From Jatrophihabitans sp. (lineage in GTDB: Bacteria; Actinomycetota; Actinomycetes; Mycobacteriales; Jatrophihabitantaceae): a stretch of DNA of 64,000 bases. Numbering within the stretch: the first letter of the stretch is position 1; each line of letters begins with the position of its first letter. The position numbers and the translations under genes were made by a program. Where the stretch lies: assembly GCA_036399055.1 (NCBI GenBank), contig DASWNX010000026.1, positions 124,001 to 188,000 on the forward strand, read 5' to 3'. Positions 53,374-64,000 of the stretch are shown here, piece after piece. The notes under the pieces are model-generated. The model was not told the DNA's origin and did no database searches. It worked only from the letters and a program-made list of their open reading frames with translations.

Positions 53374-53462
53374 GCTGGCTGACGATACCGCTCGTCTACC
53401 CGGCCGCAGCCGATGAACATCAGCCCAGTCGATTGAGCAATCGAGGGACGGAGCGACGAACG

Positions 53463-56414
53463 GTGCACGCTGTCACCATCGCGGCGCGCAACTACCTGGC
53501 CATGGCCCGCACCCTGGCGCGTTCGTTCCTGGCCTGCAATCCCGACTCGCACTTCAGCGTGCTGGTGGTTGACGCGCTGCCCGGTGAGATACCCAGCACG
53601 GACGGCTTCGAGGTGGTGACGCCCCACGAACTCAGCCTGGAGCCGGCCGAGTTGAGCAGGATGGCGTTGCTCTACGACATCACCGAGCTCTCGACCGCGC
53701 TGAAGCCCTGGGCACTGGAATTGCTGCTCGACCGCGGCGCCGACGTCGCGGTCTACCTGGACCCCGACATCTACGTCTACAGCGCGCTGGACGAGATCGA
53801 GCGTGCCGCCCTCGACAGCACCATCCTGCTCACCCCGCACACGGTCAGCCCGATGCGCCGGGACAGCCTGCGGCCATCCGAGGCAGACATCATGGGCGCC
53901 GGCGTCTACAACTTGGGTTTCATCGCCGTCAACAAGGACGCGCGCGCCATGCTGGGGTGGTGGCAGGAGCGGCTGCGCCGGGACTCGATCTCAGCGCCTG
54001 AGCAGATGCTGTTCACCGACCAGCGCTGGATCGACCTGGTGCCGGGTTACTTCGACCACGGCGTGCTGCGCGATCCGGGCTACAACGTCGCGTACTGGAA
54101 CCTCGACAGCCGCCGGATCGAGTGGGACGGCCAGGCCTACCAGGTCGATTCCCGGCCGTTGCGGTTCTTCCACTTCAGCGGCTACAACCCCGACACGCCC
54201 TGGATTCTGAGCAAGTACGTCGCCGACCGTCCCCGGGTCCTGCTGAGCGAACACCCGACTGTTCGGCGACTGTGCGATGAGTACGCGGCCGCTCTCAAGC
54301 ACGAAGGCTTCGACCGGTCACTCGGCACGCCCTACCGCTTCGGCCGTCTCAACGACGGCACGGCCGTCACCTCGATGATGCGTCGCGCCTACCGCAGCGC
54401 GGTGGTCGAGGCCGAGCTGGCCGGCGACCCCTACCCGCCGATGCCCTTCCGCGACGATGACGCCGACGTGCTGGCCTGGTTCAGCGCGCCGGTGGCCGAG
54501 GGCAGCTGGGTCAACCGGCTGGTGGAAAGCCTGTGGCGCAACCGGCCTGACCTTCAGCTGGCCTTCCCCGACATCTTCGGCGTCGACCAGGCGCCGCTGC
54601 TGGCCTGGTGCCTGACCTCGGGGGTGCGCGAAGCGCAACTGTCAGCGGCGCTGCTGCCCACCGAGGCGCTGGCTGCCAACGGCGCCCTACCGGTCATCAG
54701 CTCCGACGTGCTCGGGGTGAACCTGGCCGGTTACTTTCGGACCGAGACCGGCGTCGGCCAGATCGGGCGGTTGCTGGCCGACGTGGTGCGGGCGACCGGG
54801 CTGCCCTATGTCACCCTCACCAGCGCCCGGACCTTGAGCCGCCAGCAGGCCGCGTTCACCGAAGAAGTCAGCGAAGTCCGCTACCCCATCACCATCGCCT
54901 CGATCAACGCCGACCAGTTCCCGCTCTGGGCCAGCGAGGCAGGAAGCTCGCTGCTGGCGGGGCGGCACACTATCGGCGTCTGGGCCTGGGAAGTCGAGGA
55001 CTTCCCCGACAGCTTCGACACCGCCATCGAATTGGTCGATGAGATCTGGGCGATCTCGGAATTCGTCCGGACGGCGATCGCCCGCAAGACCGACAAGCCG
55101 GTGTATGTGATCCCCTATCCGGTCCCGGAGCTGCCCCGGACCGCGGAGCTGGACCGGGATGCGCTCAGGCTGCCGGATCGGCCGTACCTGCTGTATATGT
55201 TCGACTACTTCAGTGTCTTTGAAAGGAAGAACCCGGTCGGCCTGGTCGAGGCGTTCACCGCTGCCTTCGCCGACGGCCAGGGCCCCGAGCTGGTCATCAA
55301 GAGCGTCAACGGAGAGCGTTTCCGCAGTCAACGCGAACAACTGCTCAGCGCCTGCCGTGGGCGTTCGGACATCCACCTCATCGAGGACTACCTCGACGCC
55401 GACGTGGTCGGGTCGTTGATAGCGCACTGCGCGGCCTACGTCTCGCTGCACCGGGCTGAGGGCCTGGGGTTGACCATGTCTGAGGCGATGTCGGCGGGCC
55501 GGCCCGTGATCGCCACCGGTTACTCCGGAAACCTCGACTTCATGAACGACGAGAACAGCTTGCTGGTCGGATACGAGCTGGCCGAGATTCCGGCGAGCGC
55601 GCGCCCGTACGGCCCGCCGACCCGGTGGGCCGAACCGGACCACGCCGAGGCGGTCCGCCACCTGCGCTGGGTGTTCGAGCACCCCGGCGAGGCCGAGCGG
55701 CTGGGAGCGCGCGCTCAGGAGGTCATGCGCAGCAGCCACGGCCTCGATCGCAGTGTCCGCTTCGTGATGGAACGGGTGCGGCAGATCGAGCAGTCCCTCA
55801 ACGCCGAACCGCCAGAGCCTGCTCAGCCGGCGCCGGTCCCGGAATCCAGACCCACGCTTGCCCTGCGCGCCTGCCACCGGCTGCTCGACACCCCCTTGCA
55901 GGTGCGGACCCGGCCCGGCGGCCTGTCCCGCGCGTCCCGATTCTTCCAGCGAGCGCTCAACCGGCTGCTGGCCAGCCATGACGAGCAGCTCAACATCCGT
56001 CTCAACGCCATCCTGGACGCGACCGACGCCGTCTCCGAGCACGTCGAGCAGGAACTGGACTCCGCAGTCGAGGGCCTGCGTGAGCGCCTGAGCGAGGTGC
56101 GGCAAACGGTTGCCCAGTTACAGGCGGCCGCCGGCCAGCAGCACAGCGCCATCTCGGGCCTGCAGTCGCTGGTGGCCAGCATCGGCGCCCATCACCAGGC
56201 CCTTGCCGAGCGCACCGACGTGCTGAGCACCATGGCGGCCGAGGCCGGCGCCGAGAGCACCGCCCAGACCTCCCGGCTGGACGCTCTGAGCGAGCTCGCC
56301 GACGGCGCTCGGCTTGGCATCGAAGGGCATCGCCGGCAGTTGGTCGACGTCGTTGAGCGCCTGGACGCGATGGCTGCGCAACTGACCCAGGCAAGCCCCG
56401 AGGAGATCCAGTGA
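53463..56414 (+). CDS. Large bifunctional glycosyltransferase (GT8-like + GT4-like) with coiled-coil tail
   Basis: 983 residues. Residues 1-270: nucleotide-sugar transferase with TIAARNYLAMARTLARSFL, a D-P-D metal site in VYLDPDIYVYS, and FHFSGYNPDTPW. Residues about 420-790: GT-B domain with ETGVGQIGRLLAD, HTIGVWAWEVEDFPD, LLYMFDYFSVFERKNP and EGLGLTMSEAMSAGRPVIATGYSGN. Residues about 840-980: coiled coil. GTG 53463 has GGAG; an in-frame TTG lies at 53433. The stop overlaps the PhyH gene start. A two-sugar addition to a surface polysaccharide is likely. Confidence 0.88.
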   Translation: MHAVTIAARNYLAMARTLARSFLACNPDSHFSVLVVDALPGEIPSTDGFEVVTPHELSLEPAELSRMALLYDITELSTALKPWALELLLDRGADVAVYLDPDIYVYSALDEIERAALDSTILLTPHTVSPMRRDSLRPSEADIMGAGVYNLGFIAVNKDARAMLGWWQERLRRDSISAPEQMLFTDQRWIDLVPGYFDHGVLRDPGYNVAYWNLDSRRIEWDGQAYQVDSRPLRFFHFSGYNPDTPWILSKYVADRPRVLLSEHPTVRRLCDEYAAALKHEGFDRSLGTPYRFGRLNDGTAVTSMMRRAYRSAVVEAELAGDPYPPMPFRDDDADVLAWFSAPVAEGSWVNRLVESLWRNRPDLQLAFPDIFGVDQAPLLAWCLTSGVREAQLSAALLPTEALAANGALPVISSDVLGVNLAGYFRTETGVGQIGRLLADVVRATGLPYVTLTSARTLSRQQAAFTEEVSEVRYPITIASINADQFPLWASEAGSSLLAGRHTIGVWAWEVEDFPDSFDTAIELVDEIWAISEFVRTAIARKTDKPVYVIPYPVPELPRTAELDRDALRLPDRPYLLYMFDYFSVFERKNPVGLVEAFTAAFADGQGPELVIKSVNGERFRSQREQLLSACRGRSDIHLIEDYLDADVVGSLIAHCAAYVSLHRAEGLGLTMSEAMSAGRPVIATGYSGNLDFMNDENSLLVGYELAEIPASARPYGPPTRWAEPDHAEAVRHLRWVFEHPGEAERLGARAQEVMRSSHGLDRSVRFVMERVRQIEQSLNAEPPEPAQPAPVPESRPTLALRACHRLLDTPLQVRTRPGGLSRASRFFQRALNRLLASHDEQLNIRLNAILDATDAVSEHVEQELDSAVEGLRERLSEVRQTVAQLQAAAGQQHSAISGLQSLVASIGAHHQALAERTDVLSTMAAEAGAESTAQTSRLDALSELADGARLGIEGHRRQLVDVVERLDAMAAQLTQASPEEIQ

Positions 56415-57502
56415 CCATGACGCAATCCGATTCGCCGCAGGCCCACATCTCCGACGAGCAATGGGATCAGTACTTTCGGCAGGGCTTTCTGCACCTTGGC
56501 CGGCTGGTGGACGCCGACGAGCTTCAACGGTTGTGCGCTCGGGTCGATGACCTGGCTTTGGGTCAGGTGGTGAACCCGCAGGTCCAGGTGCAGCTGGACA
56601 CCGGCGGCCGTTACGAGGATCTGCCGGACGTGACGGCGCAGCCGGCCGCCGGCACCTTGCTGTACCGCAAGGTGCAAGGCCTGGAAACCGACGAGCTGTT
56701 CCGCTCGGTGCTGCGCAGCCCGGTGCTCGCCGAGATCGCCGCGCACCACTACGGCCCCCACACCTCGGCATCGCTGTTTCGAGCGATGGTGATGAACAAG
56801 CCCGCCGCGCAGGGCACCGTGCTGCCCTGGCATCAGGACGGCGGCGACGTCTGGGCGCTCGACCGCGACCCACTGATCACGATCTGGATGGCGCTGGACG
56901 ACGCGACGGCCGCCAACGGTTGCGTGGAGGTGATCCCGGGCAGTCACCGGCTCGGCCTGGTGAGCGCCCAGGGCAGCACCCTCAGCGACCAGGACGCGCA
57001 GCGGCACTGCCCGCAGGATCAGGTGCTGCCGCTGGAAGTGCCGGCCGGGCACGCGGTGCTCATGCACAATTGGCTCATTCACCGGTCGGGAGTGAACCCG
57101 ACGCCGATGCCGCGGCGAGCCTTCACCGCCTGCTACCTGGACTCGCGCACCCGCAATATCCTCACCGGCGAGCACTTCCCGCTGATCCTTGGCGCCTCAA
57201 CCGGCCCTTCGCATCCCTACCTCGACCTGCTGCGCGAGGAGCAGGCCGCCCAGGCGGCGAGCGCGGACTCAGCAGCCGAGTACGCCCTGAGTTTGAAGGC
57301 GGACAACGCCGTGCTGCAGGAGTCGATCAGGTCAGCGACCGAGTACGCGCGCAGCCTGGAGGCCGAGGTGGCCCGGTTGCGAGCACCGGTCGCTGCTCCG
57401 CCGCCGCCCGCGGGGGTGGCTGAGCTATCGTCGGCTCTGGCCAAGGCGGGTCTCCAGCGCGGCCGCGTGCTGCTCCGCCGTTTCCGCTCGGTCGAGCAGT
57501 GA
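56411..57502 (+). CDS. PhyH-family dioxygenase with coiled-coil tail
   Basis: 363 residues: Fe(II)/2OG oxygenase domain (1-275) with HxD in L-P-W-H-Q-D-G near 139, distal His in NWLIHRSGVNPT near 221 and Arg after it. The tail (about 280-350) is a heptad-like helix with E-Y-A-L-S-L and E-Y-A-R-S-L repeats. It begins with a GTGA overlap of the glycosyltransferase stop (ATG at 56417 is also possible), and its last 78 bp overlap the 3' end of the convergent pyruvyltransferase gene. It may hydroxylate a sugar or lipid. Confidence 0.87.
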   Translation: MTMTQSDSPQAHISDEQWDQYFRQGFLHLGRLVDADELQRLCARVDDLALGQVVNPQVQVQLDTGGRYEDLPDVTAQPAAGTLLYRKVQGLETDELFRSVLRSPVLAEIAAHHYGPHTSASLFRAMVMNKPAAQGTVLPWHQDGGDVWALDRDPLITIWMALDDATAANGCVEVIPGSHRLGLVSAQGSTLSDQDAQRHCPQDQVLPLEVPAGHAVLMHNWLIHRSGVNPTPMPRRAFTACYLDSRTRNILTGEHFPLILGASTGPSHPYLDLLREEQAAQAASADSAAEYALSLKADNAVLQESIRSATEYARSLEAEVARLRAPVAAPPPPAGVAELSSALAKAGLQRGRVLLRRFRSVEQ

Positions 57503-58984
57503 CGCCGCGTACTGCTCGGCGATCTCGGCCCTGCGCAGCAGCGAGCGCACGTAGGGCTCGTGGCGTTCGGCCTGTTCCTGCAACGACAACGCGTACCGCT
57601 CGGCCTGTTCGGCTTGCTGCCTCAGTGCTGACCGCTCGCTGAGCGCGGCGCCCAGCTCGGCCTCGGAGAGTTCGATGAAGTCCGGCAGCTTCGGCTCGGA
57701 CCACTGCGGCCTGATCGGCTGGCCCCCCGGCGCGAGCTCGCCGTCGACCAGTCCGGCGAGCAGTGCCCCCAGCCGAACGCTCGCCTGCTCGCCAGCGTCG
57801 GTCGGCAACTGCGCGGCCAGGTGGCGACGCTGCCCCCACAGTTCGGTGGCCGCCGGCAGCAGTCGGCCGGCGACGGCGTTCTCGACCGACAACCGCCAGT
57901 CGGCCATGCCGTAGTGGCTCAGAGCGCCGATTCCTTTCATGGCGGTGTAGGCGTCCTGGTGCAGAAAGAGCATCGGCGTCTGGCAACTGCCGGCGAACAC
58001 CACCGGGTGGTAGCGGCTGCTGATCACCAGCTCAGCCCGGCGGCAGTACTCGATCGCCTGCGACGCCGACGGCAGCGGCACTACGACGGCCGTGCGGTCA
58101 CTGCCCAGCTCGGCCAGCCGCGCGTCGAAGGCGGCAGCGACCCGGTGCGCGGCGGCGACGTCCTGAAGCGGCGCGCCACCGAGGTCACCGGCGTGAGGCA
58201 CCAGCACCACGCCGGCGCCGGTCAGGTGGCTGTGCTCGGCCAGCTGGACGGCGATGGCGCTCAACGCGCCATCGCCGAGGTCGTTGAGGGTGACGGCGAG
58301 GAACGGGGGCCGCAGATCTCCGGCATCACCAGTGCCAAGCGCGGCGTCGGCGGGCGAGGCCTCTGAGCAGAGCGCCGCCGCGTCGTCGTTGCCCAGCACG
58401 AGCCGCTCCCCCGGCACGCCCAGAAGCTGCGCCAGGGCATAGGACCACTTCTCGCGGACGCCCACCGCCACGGCGGCGTCGAGCAGCTCGACCACCAGTG
58501 GTCGCACTTCGGCGCCGAACCGCGGCCCGATGCTCTGGCCGGTGAGGGCCATCGGCACGCCTAGCCGGCGGGCCAACCGGCTCAGCGCCACCCGCTCGTA
58601 GACCAGCGCCGGCCAGGACTGGCTGAGGTTTCCGCCGCCGGCGATGACGAGGGCGGTCGCGCCGGACATGAGCTGACGAAGCCGCTGGCCGGGACCGGGC
58701 GCGGTGACCGCCAACGAGTCGAGTTCGGCCAGCATCGCTGCCCGGCTGGCTTCGTCGGGGCAGTCCTGGAAGCCGAAGGGCGCAGTCGAGGGATGGCCGA
58801 ACCGGGCAGCGGCGCTCTGTGGGCTTGCCGACACCACAGTCCAGTCGGCGTCGATCCCGGCGCGTTCGGCCGCCGCCAGCAGCCCGAACAGCATCGCGTC
58901 GTCTCCGACGTGGTAGTCGGCGACGCTGCCCACGTCACCGGCCACCAGCAAGCGTGGCCGGGGCCTGTCAGGATCGGTTGGCAC
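57425..58984 (-). CDS. Polysaccharide pyruvyltransferase-family protein with coiled-coil tail
   Basis: 519 residues: GT-B-like domain of the PS_pyruv_trans family (1-390), with G-D-D-A-M-L near 28, IAGGGNLSQSWP, TGQSIGPRFG and ELVISSRYHPVVFAGSCQTPM, followed by a tail of E-Q-A-E-R-Y-A-L-S-L type repeats (about 440-515). The family adds a ketal pyruvate to surface glycans. The tail resembles that of the convergent PhyH protein, and the two genes overlap by 78 bp at their 3' ends. GTG start. Confidence 0.85.
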   Translation of the reverse strand: MPTDPDRPRPRLLVAGDVGSVADYHVGDDAMLFGLLAAAERAGIDADWTVVSASPQSAAARFGHPSTAPFGFQDCPDEASRAAMLAELDSLAVTAPGPGQRLRQLMSGATALVIAGGGNLSQSWPALVYERVALSRLARRLGVPMALTGQSIGPRFGAEVRPLVVELLDAAVAVGVREKWSYALAQLLGVPGERLVLGNDDAAALCSEASPADAALGTGDAGDLRPPFLAVTLNDLGDGALSAIAVQLAEHSHLTGAGVVLVPHAGDLGGAPLQDVAAAHRVAAAFDARLAELGSDRTAVVVPLPSASQAIEYCRRAELVISSRYHPVVFAGSCQTPMLFLHQDAYTAMKGIGALSHYGMADWRLSVENAVAGRLLPAATELWGQRRHLAAQLPTDAGEQASVRLGALLAGLVDGELAPGGQPIRPQWSEPKLPDFIELSEAELGAALSERSALRQQAEQAERYALSLQEQAERHEPYVRSLLRRAEIAEQYAASLLDRAETAEQHAAALETRLGQSRR

Positions 58985-59080: not shown

Positions 59081-59800
59081 TCAGCGGTAAGGGTGGCGGG
59101 TGAGCGCGGCATGCACCATGTTCGTCAGCGTCACGATGTCGAAGACGGGCAGTCCGAGGCGCTGCTGGATGTCATGGGCGAACGGGACCAGGTCGGTGCA
59201 CTCGATCACCAGGGCGCCTAGGTCGGGGTTGGCCCGCGCCAACTCCTCGACCTGGCTGAGCACGTCGGCTTTCAGCCGCTCGACGTCGAGCTCGACCCGG
59301 CGCCCTTCGAGCATGACCTCCCGAAACTCGGTCGAGGACTCCATCCCGATGACGCAGACTTCGACGTCCTGGGCCCCGATGGCCGCCAGGTGCCGCGGCG
59401 TCAGCGACACCTGCTTGGCCACCAGCAACCCGACCTTCCGATCGGCGGAGATCATCCGGCGCACCATCGGCAGCTGGGTCAGGCTGGAGGCGAACAGCGG
59501 AACGGTCACCGCGTCGGCCAGCTGCTTCTGAAACAGCACCAGGAAGCCGCAGCCGGTGGTGATGGCGGCTGCGCCGCGCGCCTGCAGCTTCTGGGCGGCC
59601 CGGCAGAACGGCTCGATCAGGCTCGGATCGGCCTGGGTGACCACCCGCTCGGCGGTGGCGCCCCGGACGACCTCGTAGAGAACCGGAAAGCCGAAGGTGC
59701 TCCGATTGCGGATGTGTCCCGGGATCTTGGTGAAGATGGTCTCCAGGCCGATCACCCCGATCGGCGCGCTGGACGGGCTGCCGGAGAGGGCGGCGGTCAT
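59081..59800 (-). CDS. Asp/Glu/hydantoin racemase-like protein
   Basis: 239 residues. The two cofactor-independent racemase cysteines are present: Cys84 in T-T-G-C-G-F and Cys201 in V-I-E-C-T-D-L, with the N-terminal PIGVIGLET strand. Such enzymes invert an alpha-carbon (aspartate, glutamate or related). Its start overlaps the stop of the FAD oxidoreductase by 4 bp, so the two are coupled; a racemase that supplies a D-amino acid to the oxidoreductase is a simple hypothesis. Last gene of the shell operon; the pyruvyltransferase follows after 96 bp. Confidence 0.87.
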   Translation of the reverse strand: MTAALSGSPSSAPIGVIGLETIFTKIPGHIRNRSTFGFPVLYEVVRGATAERVVTQADPSLIEPFCRAAQKLQARGAAAITTGCGFLVLFQKQLADAVTVPLFASSLTQLPMVRRMISADRKVGLLVAKQVSLTPRHLAAIGAQDVEVCVIGMESSTEFREVMLEGRRVELDVERLKADVLSQVEELARANPDLGALVIECTDLVPFAHDIQQRLGLPVFDIVTLTNMVHAALTRHPYR

Positions 59801-61128
59801 CGGAGTCCTCCTACGGGCTGGGCGGCGCGGGGACGCAGCCAGGGCGGTGGCGTGTTGTAGCGGTCCAGCCGGAACGGCGCCAGGTCCATCGACGGCTGGC
59901 TGCCCTCGATCAGCTGAGCGACCAGCTGCCCGCCCACCGGAGTCAGGCCCATGCCGCTGTGGCCATGGCCGGCGGCCACGGTGAGGTTGTCATAGGCCGG
60001 CGCCCGGCCGATGAACGGCAGGCTGTCCGGGGTGCAAGGCCGCAGCCCGGCCCACACCTGCAGCGTCTCGGTGCGTGACATGGCGGGCAGGTGGGCGTGC
60101 ACGGTCTGCAGCATGCGCCCGACCCGCCGCCGCGAGATCGAGGTGTCCATGCCGCTCAGCGCCATGTCGCCCCCGTAACGCAGCTGATCGGTGAACGGCC
60201 GCACCGCGACCGTCCCCTCCACCAGCAACACCAGTCCGCGCGGGGCGTTGTCGGGCCTGCGCACCGTGATGCTGTAGCCCTTGATCGGCTGCAGCTCAAG
60301 ATTGACATCCAGCAGCCGCGCGAGCGTCCCCGACCAGCTGCCCGCCGCCACCACGATCTCGCGCGGGCGGAAGTCCCCGCGGTCGGTGCGCAGGCCCAGA
60401 ACCGTGCGCCCGGACACCTCGAAGCCCTCGACCGCGCAGTTCTCGACCAGGTCGACGCCCATCTCGGTCAGCGTCCGAGCCAGCGAGACGATGAAGCTGG
60501 GCACTCGCAGAAAGCCGGCGCCCTCGTTGTACAGCGCGCCGGCGATGTCGAACTCGGTGTCCGGTTCCAGCGCCCGCAGCTCGTCCGGTTCCAGGACGCG
60601 CAGCCGCACCCCGGCGGCCAAGGCCCGTGGCAGCGCCTGGCGAGCCCGTGCGAAGGCGTCGGCTGTCTTGTAGGCCTGGACCACGCCGGTCGCGGTGAAG
60701 TCAGGGTGCGGCAAGTCGCTGACCCGCAAGCCGTGCAGGATCTCCAGGCTGCGCCGCTTGAGCTCGGCCATCACGCTCGCGCTGCGCCGGACCTGCTCCG
60801 GCCGGCCCGCCCGGTGCAGCTGCCACAACCAGTGCAACCGCCGGCGGTCCAGGGTCGGCGGCAGCGCCAACCGGTCGTCCGGCCGTAGCGCCGAGAGCAA
60901 TCCGCGGCGCAGCACCGCCGGTCCGGCCAGCGGAACACCGCCGTTGGCCACGAAACCGGTGTTGCCGTACGAGCAGGCCACCGGGTCGCCCACCGCGTCC
61001 CGGTCGAGCACGGTGACGGTGTGCCCCGCCAGGCGCAGGAAGTAGGCGCACCAGAGCCCGGCGGCGCCGCCCCCGATCACCAACACGTCCGGCTCGTGGG
61101 ACGAGCCGGTCAGCGGCCGGTCGGGCAC
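59797..61128 (-). CDS. FAD-dependent D-amino-acid dehydrogenase/oxidase-like protein (DadA/DAO family)
   Basis: 443 residues with the FAD motif VIGGGAAG (17-24), E-D-type hinge VTVLDRDAVGD, RREIVVAAGSWSG-like block (PREIVVAAGSWSGTL) and the C-terminal VWAGLRPCTPDSLPFIGR and GHGHSGMGLTPVGG. These mark DadA-like enzymes, which oxidise D-amino acids or secondary amines. It starts 7 bp downstream of the shell-protein gene and overlaps the racemase. The last residues, A-Q-P-V-G-G-L-R, resemble the I-G-S-L-R cargo peptides of Family 1 encapsulins, so it may be the cargo; this is inference. Confidence 0.88.
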   Translation of the reverse strand: MPDRPLTGSSHEPDVLVIGGGAAGLWCAYFLRLAGHTVTVLDRDAVGDPVACSYGNTGFVANGGVPLAGPAVLRRGLLSALRPDDRLALPPTLDRRRLHWLWQLHRAGRPEQVRRSASVMAELKRRSLEILHGLRVSDLPHPDFTATGVVQAYKTADAFARARQALPRALAAGVRLRVLEPDELRALEPDTEFDIAGALYNEGAGFLRVPSFIVSLARTLTEMGVDLVENCAVEGFEVSGRTVLGLRTDRGDFRPREIVVAAGSWSGTLARLLDVNLELQPIKGYSITVRRPDNAPRGLVLLVEGTVAVRPFTDQLRYGGDMALSGMDTSISRRRVGRMLQTVHAHLPAMSRTETLQVWAGLRPCTPDSLPFIGRAPAYDNLTVAAGHGHSGMGLTPVGGQLVAQLIEGSQPSMDLAPFRLDRYNTPPPWLRPRAAQPVGGLR

Positions 61129-61135
61129 CGTGGGC

Positions 61136-62017
61136 CTACAAGGTCACCAGGTAGAAGGTGAACGGCAGGTTCACCACCACCCGCTCGTAGATCTCGGCCT
61201 TCACCGCGATGCCGGGTCGGTTGAACGTCCCCGGTGGCGGCTCGGCGAATCGGATCGTCGACCGGCCGGCGTCAAAGAGCTCCGCGCCATGGCCGAAGTC
61301 ACCGACCAGCGCCGTGCCGGGCTCCACGAGGCGAGTCCGGACGATGAACACGCCATTGCGTTCCAGCGTGTCCATCAATCGGCTGCTCTCCAGGTACCGG
61401 TAGTAATCAACCGGGTTGAGGACCAGCCCGTCCGCGGTGCAACCCATCTGCTCGATCTCGTCGCAGGCCGCCATGATCGTCGAGGTGAACGGCGCCTTGG
61501 AGGTGATCCGAGGGATCTGCGGCATACTCAGCAAGCCGGTCTCACCGCACAAGATCGTGTAGTTCTCCGCGGTGCACAGCCGGATGATCAACCGGTAGTT
61601 GATGAAGGACTCGAAGGCGTGCGCGTCCTGCCACAGGCCGTCGGGCACCTGCACCCACGCCGTGGTGGTCAGCAGTTCAGGGATGGGCGACAGGTGAAAG
61701 TGATTGGCCAGCTCCCGCCGTTCCTGGCCGAACGTCACCTCAGGGTCTCCGGGCTGCCGGGTGGTCTCGTGCCAGTAGAGCTGCCTGGGGTCTTCGGACA
61801 GGTTGACGATCTTGAGCATGTTCCGGACCGGAAAGCGCGGCTTACGGCGCAAGCTGGGCAGCGCGTCGGTGACGGTCACATCGAAGTCGACCACCGCGTC
61901 GAGGCCGTCCTTGCGGTAAGCCTCGAAGAAGTGGCGACCCGGCGACATCTGCGACCGTCGATCGGCCACGACCTCGCCGAGGGTCCGTTTGACGGTTATG
62001 GTTTGTGGGATTGACAT
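61136..62017 (-). CDS. HK97-fold encapsulin-like shell protein
   Basis: 293 residues that read as an HK97 major-capsid fold. Residues 60-115 look like the E-loop (PRFPVRNMLKIV...YWHETTR); 116-160 the spine-helix region (AWVQVPDGLWQDA, FESFINYRLIIRL, ENYTILCGE); 195-208 the GLVLNPVDYYRY helix; 231-258 VEPGTALVGDF..GAELFD; 270-293 AVKAEIYERVVV and FYLVTL, the usual capsid C-terminus. No phage protease, portal, terminase or tail gene is near. Operon neighbours are metabolic, as for Family 3 encapsulins. No cyclic-nucleotide-binding insert of Family 2 is seen. AGGA upstream of ATG 62017. Confidence 0.88.
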   Translation of the reverse strand: MSIPQTITVKRTLGEVVADRRSQMSPGRHFFEAYRKDGLDAVVDFDVTVTDALPSLRRKPRFPVRNMLKIVNLSEDPRQLYWHETTRQPGDPEVTFGQERRELANHFHLSPIPELLTTTAWVQVPDGLWQDAHAFESFINYRLIIRLCTAENYTILCGETGLLSMPQIPRITSKAPFTSTIMAACDEIEQMGCTADGLVLNPVDYYRYLESSRLMDTLERNGVFIVRTRLVEPGTALVGDFGHGAELFDAGRSTIRFAEPPPGTFNRPGIAVKAEIYERVVVNLPFTFYLVTL

Positions 62018-62044
62018 GTCTTCCTCTCGATTCGCACAAGGTGA

Positions 62045-62902
62045 TCAGGTGGTGGCGCCGGCCGGCTTGCGGGCGACGAAGACGCCCCAGCCGAATTCGC
62101 CACGGTCGATCGCCAGCTGTATCTCCGAACACGAGCCGGCGAAGGCGAGAATCCACTCCCGGGCCGCCGGGTCGTCAGTGGCTTGGGCTCGCTGGATCGC
62201 CACGGTCCGGAGCACGCCGTAGGTCTGCCTGATGTGGGTCACCAGGTTGCGTGCCGACAGCACCTGGAAGCCGGCGCGCTCCAAAGCGGCCTGGTAGTCG
62301 AGGAAGGAGTAACCGCTGCTCCAGCGAACCCGGTCATAGACATGGGTACGGGCCTGCTCGCTGATGTCCTGCTTCGGTTGCAGGAAATCGGAGAATGCGA
62401 AGACGCCGCCAGGCGCCAGCACCCGGTAGACCTCTGCATGACTACGCGGCTTGTCCGGCACCAGGAACAGCGCGTCCTGGCTGACCACATGGCTGAACGT
62501 GCCGTCGGCATAAGGCATCTTCGTCGCCGAGCCATGGGTGAAGGCCAGCTCAAGACCGGCCCGCCGCTCGGATGCCGACTGTCGCTGGGCGAATCTCACC
62601 CGCTCCAGACTCAGATCCAACCCCTCACCCCGGCAGCCGTAGCGCTGTGCCAGGTGAAACAGGAAATTGCCGCAACCACAGCCGACATCCAGCACATAGG
62701 ACTGCGAGGTGACGCCTGCCTCGGCGGCGAGCAGGTCAGAGGTGCGTTCAGCCGCCGCCCGGTAGTCCTCGTCCTCGGGACCGGCGAAGTAACCGGTATG
62801 CAGCACGCCCTCGCTGTCCCAGAAGCTCAGATAGGTCTGGGTGGTCTCGTCGAAGAAGCCCTCCACGTCATGCTCGGTGAAGGACTGGCCGGTGGTGGTC
62901 AT
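62045..62902 (-). CDS. Class I SAM-dependent methyltransferase
   Basis: 285 residues with motif I Y-V-L-D-V-G-C-G-C-G-N near 70, G-L-D-L-S-L motif II near 97 and a post-I DALFLVPDKPR and post-III FAFSDF. The overall shape is like the UbiE / glycine-sarcosine N-methyltransferase group; substrate unknown. A strong AAAGGAAG site precedes ATG 62902. It is 27 bp upstream of the shell gene and 45 bp downstream of the SDR gene, in the same operon. Possibly N- or O-methylates the substrate of the FAD enzyme. Confidence 0.88.
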   Translation of the reverse strand: MTTTGQSFTEHDVEGFFDETTQTYLSFWDSEGVLHTGYFAGPEDEDYRAAAERTSDLLAAEAGVTSQSYVLDVGCGCGNFLFHLAQRYGCRGEGLDLSLERVRFAQRQSASERRAGLELAFTHGSATKMPYADGTFSHVVSQDALFLVPDKPRSHAEVYRVLAPGGVFAFSDFLQPKQDISEQARTHVYDRVRWSSGYSFLDYQAALERAGFQVLSARNLVTHIRQTYGVLRTVAIQRAQATDDPAAREWILAFAGSCSEIQLAIDRGEFGWGVFVARKPAGATT

Positions 62903-62947
62903 GATCTTCCTTTCTCCAACGTGCGTGTGCGCGACGGTGAAGCTGCC

Positions 62948-63784
62948 TCAGGTGAAGGTGAAGGCGCCCGGGGCGGCGCCGGTCAGGTGCGGCAGGTCCG
63001 GTCCGACCACGCCGGCCCCGCCGTCGATCAGGTGGACCGCGCCGGTGACGAAGGAGGCGCGCTCGCTGGCCAGGAACGCGGCGACCGCGCCGACCTCGTC
63101 CGGACGTGCCAACCGGCCCACCGCGCTGTGCTCTCCCATCGCCGCGAGAGTGGCCTCGACGGTGGTTGAATCACCTGCCAGCCTGGCAGCGGCCCGTTCC
63201 ATCGGAGGGGTGCGCACGCCGCCTGGCGCCAGGACGTTGACCGTGATGCTCTCCCGGCCGAGATCGGCGGCCAGCCCTTGAGCGAAGCGCACCACCGCCG
63301 CCCTGGTGACCCCGGACAGGGTCAGCGGCCCGATCGGCGCGACGGCGGTCTCGGAGGCCACGAACAGCAGCCGTCCCCAGCCCGCGCTTCGCAGATGCGG
63401 CACCGCGGCCAGCGCCACGGCGACCGCCGGGTAGAGCACCTTGTCCACCGCGGCCTGGTAGTCGGCGAACTCGAACCGCGACGCGGGACCGATCGGCGGG
63501 CTGCCGCCGCTGACCAACACGATGTGCAGCGCCCCGAACTCGGCGGCCACCTCATCCACCCAACGCCGGGCGGCCTCGGGGTCGGTCAGGTCCAGGCTGG
63601 CGCCGGTGACCCGGCCGCGGGCCACCTCTTTGACGCTGCCGACGGCCGCGTCCAACTGCTCGACGCCCCGGGCCGCGATCGCCACATGCGCGCCTTCACG
63701 GGCCAGCTCGGTGGCCACCGCCAAACCGATCCCGCTCGAACCGCCGGCGACCAGCGCCACCTTGTCCTCAAGACCCAGATCCAC
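62948..63784 (-). CDS. Atypical short-chain dehydrogenase/reductase
   Basis: 278 residues: Rossmann motif V-A-G-G-S-S-G-I-G (12-20) with the usual Thr changed to Ala, VSGGSP replacing NNAG, Ser144, and at the Tyr-x3-Lys site Ser157-G-V-T-Arg161. The C-terminal ITVNVLAPGGVRTPP and FVTGAVHLIDGG are normal. The altered active site occurs in a known subset of SDRs whose chemistry is not clear. GTG 63784 gives the typical family N-terminus; GTG 63793 is possible. The start overlaps the upstream partial frame by 17 bp. Confidence 0.85.
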   Translation of the reverse strand: MDLGLEDKVALVAGGSSGIGLAVATELAREGAHVAIAARGVEQLDAAVGSVKEVARGRVTGASLDLTDPEAARRWVDEVAAEFGALHIVLVSGGSPPIGPASRFEFADYQAAVDKVLYPAVAVALAAVPHLRSAGWGRLLFVASETAVAPIGPLTLSGVTRAAVVRFAQGLAADLGRESITVNVLAPGGVRTPPMERAAARLAGDSTTVEATLAAMGEHSAVGRLARPDEVGAVAAFLASERASFVTGAVHLIDGGAGVVGPDLPHLTGAAPGAFTFT

Positions 63785-64000
63785 CGGGCGCACCCCCCGA
63801 CCCCAGGTTCGGTGAGGAGGCTTGTGAGCTGACCGCGGCCGCCGGCTGAACGGGCCGGGGTCTGACCCGCAAACCACCCCGGTGCCGGTAGCCGTAGCGC
63901 CAGGACATCGGCCAGGACAGCAGCATGGCGGCCAGCCGGGCCTGTCGGGGCAACCCGCGGGTCCAGGAGTCGTCGTGCGGCCGGATGACGGTGGCCCCGG
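63768..64000 (-). CDS. Partial gene, C-terminal end only
   Basis: The frame is open from the right edge to a stop at 63768 (GATVIRPHDDSWTRG..., then R-L-A-A-M-L-L-S-W-P-M-S-W-R-Y-G-Y). It is 77 codons in view. A Trp/Arg-rich C-terminus that ends in a Pro/Ser-rich tail resembles a protein end, but the family cannot be told. Likely the gene before the SDR in the operon. Confidence 0.45.
   Translation of the reverse strand, partial: GATVIRPHDDSWTRGLPRQARLAAMLLSWPMSWRYGYRHRGGLRVRPRPVQPAAAVSSQASSPNLGSGGAPGGSGS

What the first reader, a model, noticed from the sequence alone, without database searches (positions are those of the whole stretch)
59081..63784. Encapsulin-like HK97 shell protein inside a five-enzyme metabolic operon
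Seen: a 293-residue protein whose order of blocks (E-loop, spine helix, LVGDF region, AVKAE...VVV end) follows the HK97 major capsid. It is embedded on one strand with SDR, methyltransferase, FAD amine oxidoreductase and racemase, with gaps of 45, 27 and 7 bp and one 4-bp overlap. There are no phage genes in 64 kb. Known: Family 3 encapsulins ('natural product encapsulins') were described by genome mining in actinobacterial biosynthetic clusters; as far as I recall their cargo and chemistry are mostly not characterised. Inference: a nanocompartment that encloses one of these enzymes, perhaps an amine oxidation step releasing H2O2 or a reactive imine. The combination with a racemase and a DadA-like enzyme may be new.
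Basis: partly seen in the sequence, partly recalled or inferred. Interest (0 to 1): 0.95.

Follow-up and report, generated by a model that had tools for sequence, protein, structure and literature searches.

The report
Protein shell in a sulfation operon
An actinobacterium carries a gene for a virus-capsid-like shell protein (a Family 3 encapsulin) inside an eight-gene metabolic operon that recurs across many actinobacteria, and the shell likely encloses the neighbouring dehydrogenase-like enzyme, whose conserved C-terminal tail is predicted to be the loading tag.

Summary
The 293-residue protein scores 309.5 bits against NCBI's Family 3 encapsulin model, cut-off 180. Its predicted fold matches HK97 capsids and encapsulins. 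The genome has no phage-portal match.

The order aminotransferase-exporter-sulfotransferase-SDR-methyltransferase-shell-FAD oxidoreductase-racemase recurs, with some genes missing or moved, at 44 distinct loci, nearly all actinobacterial. Sulfotransferase/SDR pairs beside Family 3 shells are in print (PMC8346489), so this is a member of a known kind.

New here is a cargo candidate. All 43 distinct SDRs of this type have a 15-22 residue C-terminal tail (28 with LPH, 27 ending D[T/V][Y/F]x). The other shell-linked SDRs (10 rows, one duplicate) and 19 of 19 SDRs elsewhere have 4-10 residues there. I infer that it loads the SDR into the shell. Against this: the FAD oxidoreductase's distances track the shell best, the tail is diverged in Nocardia, and a lid or contact role also fits. 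Cargo and product are untested.

The parts
61136..62017 (-). Family 3 encapsulin shell protein, 293 aa
   Evidence: NF041188 309.5 bits vs cut-off 180; HK97 fold in AF2 model; several listed relatives carry the NCBI name 'family 3 encapsulin nanocompartment shell protein'
62948..63784 (-). SDR-like protein, 278 aa, GTG start; catalytic YxxxK replaced by SxxxR; candidate cargo
   Evidence: Pfam adh_short_C2 4.5e-40; SxxxR in 54 of 54 shell-linked SDR rows, two of them duplicates; also in solved 2z1n
62951..63016 (-). C-terminal 22-residue tail of the SDR after DGG, candidate cargo-loading peptide; it has the LPHLT part but not the common DT(Y/F)T ending
62045..62902 (-). SAM-dependent methyltransferase, 285 aa
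   Evidence: Pfam Methyltransf_25 5.6e-19; best solved relative D-glucose O-methyltransferase 6uv6, E 2.6e-23
59797..61128 (-). FAD-dependent oxidoreductase, DadA/glycine oxidase-like, 443 aa
   Evidence: Pfam DAO 2e-65; NF001933 234.7 bits, below its cut-off 383; best solved relative glycine oxidase 4ysh
59081..59800 (-). Asp/Glu racemase-family protein, 239 aa, both family cysteines kept
   Evidence: NF005679 278.9 bits, cut-off 231; both Cys in 42 of 42 aligned rows, one a duplicate
63768..64000 (-). C-terminal end of the sulfotransferase gene; its start lies 790 bases beyond the window (L013:7769-8791), preceded in the operon by MFS exporter (L013:8804-9970) and DegT aminotransferase (L013:9967-11307)
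   Evidence: Pfam Sulfotransfer_3 6.5e-12, MFS_1 7.5e-44, DegT_DnrJ_EryC1 8.1e-56; places
57425..58984 (-). Polysaccharide pyruvyl transferase-like gene, 96 bp downstream of the racemase; lineage-specific neighbour, probably not part of the conserved unit
   Evidence: PF04230 3.5e-26; found at 2 of 44 type I loci, this one included

Best explanation
The protein matches the Family 3 encapsulin shell family and is predicted to assemble into an HK97-type shell that likely encloses the neighbouring SDR-like enzyme through that enzyme's conserved C-terminal tail, within an eight-gene operon that would make, sulfate and export a small amine. Shown here: family match, predicted fold, conserved gene order, the operon-type-specific SDR tail, intact motifs in aminotransferase, sulfotransferase and racemase. 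Inferred: (1) the DegT enzyme aminates a ketone precursor; (2) the FAD enzyme and the two-cysteine racemase adjust an amino-acid-like centre; (3) the methyltransferase adds a methyl group where present; (4) the SDR and sulfotransferase act together, the SDR inside the shell, to make and cap a reactive or labile hydroxyl/carbonyl intermediate; (5) the MFS protein exports the product. The SDR lacks the canonical Tyr-Lys pair, so its chemistry is probably not an ordinary ketone reduction.
For: Family and fold. Conserved unit at 44 distinct type I loci: shell 44, SDR 43, sulfotransferase 43 (the one locus without both, L033, starts inside the operon at a contig end), racemase 41, aminotransferase 40, FAD enzyme 40, exporter 37, methyltransferase 33 (places). 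At L063-L070 (shells 31-34% identical) only sulfotransferase-SDR-shell of these genes is found. SDR tail of 15-22 residues at 43 of 43 distinct type I SDRs (34 of 44 rows exactly 20), against 5-6 at 10 of 10 other shell-linked rows (one duplicate) and 4-10 at 19 of 19 SDRs not beside a shell in related genomes. In the 120 best SDR relatives, whose genomic context is unknown, 104 tails are exactly 20 residues; of these His10 is kept in 104, Leu11 in 103, Pro6 in 101, Thr18 in 101. Last 20 columns, mean top-residue frequency: SDR 0.62, sulfotransferase 0.28, aminotransferase 0.45, FAD enzyme 0.47. The tail is the least confident part of the SDR model (block means 68, 63, 59). It persists where FAD enzyme and racemase are missing. 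The GPxLPH-type DNA pattern occurs once in the genome, in this SDR.
Against: Mirror-tree correlation with the shell is lowest for the SDR (0.76, level with the aminotransferase's 0.77) and highest for the FAD enzyme (0.90) among five genes at 33 loci. Type II SDRs sit next to the shell without any tail, so the tail cannot be the loading signal for the whole family. The motif varies even within type I: LPH in 28 and a D[T/V][Y/F]x ending in 27 of 43; all ten Nocardia SDRs lack both, and this window's own tail lacks the second part. Last-20 conservation is higher in methyltransferase (0.82), racemase (0.66) and shell (0.87); I judge those columns to be fold, untested. A mostly fixed length without a variable linker is as expected of a subunit contact or active-site lid as of a targeting peptide. 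The SDR model is a monomer, so a tail ordered only in a tetramer would look disordered. The comparison with solved SDRs spans model residues 1-263 and barely tests the tail. No shell-tail complex could be modelled. No data on assembly, cargo or product.
Confidence: 0.38

Rival explanations
1. The FAD oxidoreductase is the cargo: the shell contains H2O2 or a reactive imine from amine oxidation.
For: Its gene follows the shell gene with a median gap of 10 bp (39 loci) and its distances track the shell best, r = 0.90 at 33 loci. It is present at 40 of 44 type I loci.
Against: Missing at L033, L052, L059, L060; no match at L063-L070. No conserved N- or C-terminal extension: last-20 mean 0.47, tails variable. 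It is the fastest-evolving of the six genes compared (mean distance 0.388), which may itself raise the correlation.
Confidence: 0.2
2. The SDR tail is a lid or subunit contact that completes the unusual SxxxR active site, for instance through its conserved histidine, and has nothing to do with the shell; cargo is another enzyme or several.
For: 20-residue length in 104 of 120 relatives, with His in 104 of these 104; Nocardia tails keep a His at the matching place although the rest has diverged; the canonical YxxxK is missing in 54 of 54 shell-linked SDR rows.
Against: The His is absent from the tails of L050, L052, L059 and L060. SxxxR SDRs without a tail exist beside type II shells and away from shells (6 of 19 controls) and in solved 2z1n, so the unusual motif does not need a tail.
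Confidence: 0.27
3. The sulfotransferase, alone or with the SDR, is the cargo; sulfation happens inside the shell.
For: With the SDR it is the only other gene kept at type I (43 of 44) and L063-L070 loci; a different sulfotransferase family (PF19798) precedes the shell gene at L019.
Against: C-terminal region poorly conserved (0.28). No match to the operon's sulfotransferase beside the shell at L016.
Confidence: 0.12
4. Captured prophage capsid gene without compartment function.
For: Weak similarity to phage capsid proteins (28% to Curtobacterium phage CliffHanger, E 4e-10).
Against: Conserved operon at 44 loci; no portal match in the genome while the control search found one in 4 of 14 genomes; no viral-contig relative.
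Confidence: 0.01

Closest known systems
Family 3 'natural product' encapsulins (Andreas and Giessen 2021, PMC8346489)
   Same: Shell family (NF041188), mostly actinobacterial hosts, sulfotransferase and SDR partners; that paper already proposes sequestration of reactive intermediates and notes extended termini on tailoring enzymes (section 9)
   Different: No NRPS, PKS or carrier protein among the eight conserved genes; a DegT aminotransferase, FAD oxidoreductase and two-cysteine racemase instead; a specific cargo tail is proposed here. Which of its six classes this is could not be checked (figures and supplements not held)
Family 3 systems with LysW-type carrier genes, here seen in Actinomadura (L064)
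   Same: Sulfotransferase-SDR-shell trio in the same order, NF041188 300 bits
   Different: Shell about 32% identical, SDR without tail, neighbours LysX-like ATP-grasp, amino acid kinase, M20 peptidase, Asn synthase; that these mark a LysW-type pathway is my reading, no LysW gene was looked for
SDR aminopropanol dehydrogenase of RMM bacterial microcompartments (6ci8/6ci9)
   Different: Different, non-HK97 shell type (recalled)
APE0912 (2z1n), SDR with SxxxR
   Different: The 260-residue chain ends within a few residues of its DGG: no C-terminal tail

Membership tests
Family 3 encapsulin | Shell protein scores over the curated NF041188 cut-off | tested here: met
   309.5 bits, cut-off 180
Family 3 encapsulin | HK97 fold | tested here: met
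Family 3 encapsulin | Embedded in a biosynthetic-type cluster with sulfotransferase and SDR | tested here: met
Family 3 encapsulin | No phage structural genes around | tested here: met
   No portal match in the genome; of the ten frames scanned in L013 to the right of the SDR, those with Pfam matches are metabolic, transport, selenocysteine or restriction-modification genes
Family 3 encapsulin | Pfam PF05065 annotation seen in some members | tested here: inconclusive
   No Pfam match for this protein; 5 of 120 listed homologues carry PF05065
Family 3 encapsulin | Self-assembly into shells | not testable with these tools
   Needs electron microscopy
Family 3 encapsulin | Dedicated cargo loading | not testable with these tools
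   Candidate tail found, no binding data
Family 1 encapsulin | PF04454 (Linocin_M18) | tested here: not met
   No match in the genome (control found 3 of 14) or in the protein's Pfam scan
Phage major capsid protein | Neighbouring portal or other phage structural genes | tested here: not met
   (portal only); conserved metabolic neighbours

The most novel reading that the evidence does not exclude
The operon-specific C-terminal tail (commonly GP-x-LPHLT...DT(Y/F)T, 20 residues) on a tetrad-less SDR is the first cargo-loading peptide found for Family 3 encapsulins, and the shell encloses an SDR with non-canonical chemistry that hands a labile intermediate to a sulfotransferase in an operon spread across Streptosporangium, Micromonospora, Nonomuraea and Jatrophihabitans-like bacteria.
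Probability: 0.33. Interest if true: 0.75.

Novelty: new member of a known kind. Interest (0 to 1): 0.45.

Why it matters
The 2021 paper that defined Family 3 encapsulins left their cargo and role open (PMC8346489, section 9), and passages of papers from 2024 and 2025 say that Family 3 still lacks experimental validation or characterisation (PMC10960027, PMC11202242, PMC12140327). A compact operon conserved at 44 loci, with one enzyme carrying an operon-specific tail, turns 'what is inside?' into a two-plasmid E. coli experiment.

Tried and rejected
Prophage capsid: rejected. Family 1 shell: rejected. No match on plasmids. Catalytically normal SDR: rejected, since 54 of 54 shell-linked SDR rows lack YxxxK; but the SxxxR form is not specific to shells (6 of 19 controls; 2z1n), so I dropped a first idea that it marks encapsulin SDRs. 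SDR-shell fusion in Actinomadura: an extraction artefact, where the frame was read past the SDR stop; corrected. Mirror-tree as support for the SDR: it came out against it and is reported so. Solved SDRs as a test of the tail: most rows were aligned with low-confidence stretches left out, so it is not counted as support. My first motif for the racemase's first cysteine matched only 4 of 41 because it was too narrow; the aligned column is Cys in 42 of 42. Other motif checks: sulfotransferase RDP motif 42 of 43, FAD motif 38 of 40, methyltransferase DxGCG 30 of 33. PDB chains titled as a Family 3 encapsulin: none among the listed matches. A phylum sample gave only 2 of 396 genomes over the cut-off, so it added no new loci.

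Literature: searches. PMC8346489: abstract, outline, passages and the whole of section 9 seen. PMC8229669, PMC10960027, PMC12140327, PMC11202242: passages around 'family 3' only. PMC12203961 and PMC12766979: passages around 'encapsulin' only, not about Family 3. All others only in search listings.

Rows dropped: L056 was removed from type I counts as a duplicate of L017; L020 and L063 are one place (same SDR) and count as two rows where 10 or 54 rows are given; and 70 sequences of unusual length were left out (numbers used are printed there); L061 (contig end, 41%), L071 and L072 (25% matches) were not counted in any class. The scan is pattern-based (71 stretches, 52 relatives), so loci without those peptide patterns are missed.

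Full report
Observation. The 293-residue protein has no Pfam match beyond chance level but scores 309.5 bits against NCBIfam's NF041188 'family 3 encapsulin nanocompartment shell protein', cut-off 180. Its AF2 model (pLDDT 83, pTM 0.80) finds phage proheads first and encapsulins further down; Family 1 and Family 2 shells are both among the structural matches. The sequence search of the PDB gives eight phage capsid sequences (E 5.5e-6 to 0.029, best 9lbm) and one chance match at 0.35. So it is a Family 3 encapsulin shell by sequence and predicted fold.

Not a prophage. The genome has no portal match, while the same search finds one in 4 of 14 control genomes. Of 139 phage records with a match, the 15 listed are 24.6-28.2% identical (best E 4e-10, Curtobacterium phage CliffHanger). 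A scan of IMG/VR matched 50 stretches by pattern, none of them a relative. No plasmid record matches.

The operon is longer than the window. The window ends inside it. On locus L013, beyond the right edge, lie a sulfotransferase (PF13469), an MFS exporter and a DegT/DnrJ/EryC1 aminotransferase, closely packed on the same strand: aminotransferase and exporter overlap by 4 bp, the exporter-sulfotransferase gap is 12 bp, sulfotransferase and SDR overlap by 17 bp (places). The unit is aminotransferase - exporter - sulfotransferase - SDR - methyltransferase - shell - FAD oxidoreductase - racemase, about 8.2 kb.

Distribution. A pattern-based scan of species genomes gave 52 loci with a related shell, read together with the own locus and six stretches of related genomes. 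Forty-four distinct loci form 'type I': the window's own and 43 with shells 61-82% identical to it. They are in Jatrophihabitans-like bacteria, Micromonospora, Nocardia, Streptosporangium, Planomonospora, Nonomuraea, Streptosporangiaceae and others; one MAG is labelled Chloroflexi (L050). Gene counts out of 44: shell 44, SDR 43, sulfotransferase 43, racemase 41, aminotransferase 40, FAD enzyme 40, exporter 37, methyltransferase 33. All ten Nocardia loci lack the methyltransferase, as does L053; L052, L059 and L060 lack FAD enzyme, racemase and exporter; L033 lacks the FAD enzyme; L021 and L054 lack the exporter. At L050, L052, L059 and L060 the aminotransferase match lies on the other strand, downstream. 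Further absences at L017, L026, L033 and L041 are at contig ends. The more distant 'type II' shells of Fodinicola and Actinomadura (L063-L070, 31-34% identical) have only sulfotransferase-SDR-shell of these genes; in L064 these sit beside LysX-like, amino acid kinase, M20 peptidase and Asn synthase genes. Among related genomes 6 of 61, and in an even sample of the phylum 2 of 396 (this genome included in both), carry a shell over the cut-off. The window's genus is likely Jatrophihabitans-like: locus L056, with the same length and gene places as same-genus G008's contig, is a Pseudonocardiales MAG, and the best homologue of the shell with a named organism is from Jatrophihabitans sp..

Enzymes. 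Both family cysteines of the racemase are kept in 42 of 42 aligned rows, one a duplicate. The aminotransferase's Lys motif is kept in 40 of 40 and the sulfotransferase's N-terminal GWCRxGST in 43 of 43 (that these are the PLP lysine and the PAPS-binding loop is recalled). The SDR is unusual: Ser and Arg replace the catalytic Tyr and Lys in 54 of 54 shell-linked rows and YxxxK is absent in 120 of 120 best relatives. The solved 2z1n shares this; I recall an SDR subgroup lacking the catalytic tetrad (cd05344), from no call. The paper's idea that SDR and sulfotransferase act in succession on a hydroxyl group (PMC8346489, section 9) therefore needs care.

Cargo candidate. All 43 distinct type I SDRs have 15-22 residues after the last DGG (34 of 44 rows exactly 20), against 5-6 in the other shell-linked SDRs (10 of 10 rows, one duplicate) and 4-10 in 19 SDRs found elsewhere in related genomes. 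In the 120 best relatives (context unknown) 104 tails are exactly 20 residues with a two-part motif: Gly5 103, Pro6 101, Leu8 101, Pro9 82, His10 104, Leu11 103, Thr12 94, Asp17 94, Thr18 101, Tyr/Phe19 103 of 104. The tails of sulfotransferase, aminotransferase and FAD enzyme are less conserved (0.28, 0.45, 0.47 against 0.62). In the SDR model the tail is the least confident part. The tail stays where the FAD enzyme is lost. I infer that it loads the SDR into the shell.

Against it. Pairwise distances of the FAD enzyme track the shell best (0.90), those of the SDR and the aminotransferase least (0.76, 0.77), at 33 loci. Type II SDRs have no tail although adjacent to their shell. Among the 43 distinct type I SDRs, LPH is present in 28 and a D[T/V][Y/F]x ending in 27; all ten Nocardia lack both, and the window's own tail ends differently. 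A mostly fixed length and a mostly kept His also fit a lid or contact element. The C-termini of methyltransferase, racemase and shell are more conserved still (0.82, 0.66, 0.87), which I ascribe to the fold. The comparison with solved SDRs barely tests the tail. None of this can be settled without a complex model or an experiment, hence 0.38.

Known or new. The family, its hosts and its sulfotransferase/SDR partners are in print (PMC8346489), and NCBI names such shells automatically. Passages of papers from 2024 and 2025 state that Family 3 lacks experimental validation or characterisation. This is a new member of a known kind; the gene-by-gene definition of the conserved unit, the missing SDR tetrad and the tail are what I add. 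My library searches showed no later work on Family 3 itself, but most subscription papers and preprints are not held.

Noticed in passing
L016:9313-12405 (related genome G002): A second, diverged Family 3 shell (30% identical, NF041188 306 bits) with an SxxxR SDR beside it, next to an IS1595-type transposase, in a genome that also has the type I operon.
   Followed up: partly
window 53433-58984: Large glycosyltransferase, PhyH-type dioxygenase and polysaccharide pyruvyl transferase left of the operon; the last is kept beside the operon in one same-genus genome (L015:17459-19021, 78%).
   Followed up: partly
L013:14083-15678: Selenocysteine synthase SelA gene upstream of the operon, beyond the window; neighbouring frames look like further selenocysteine genes (not tested).
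   Followed up: no
L013:16885-18932: DNA methylase next to an SfiI-like restriction enzyme, with lower third-position GC than its neighbours.
   Followed up: no
L044:9584-10870: The shell frame is split in two at this Nocardia locus; draft-sequence error or decay.
   Followed up: no
L064:4600-8094: Lantibiotic dehydratase-like gene beside the type II Family 3 cluster of Actinomadura harenae.
   Followed up: no
L019:9141-12794: A Family 3 shell (41% identical, 334 bits) preceded by an aldo/keto reductase and a PF19798 sulfotransferase, with no match to the SDR, and followed by a match to the operon's exporter (49%); this suggests that oxidoreductase plus sulfotransferase is the constant theme.
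   Followed up: partly
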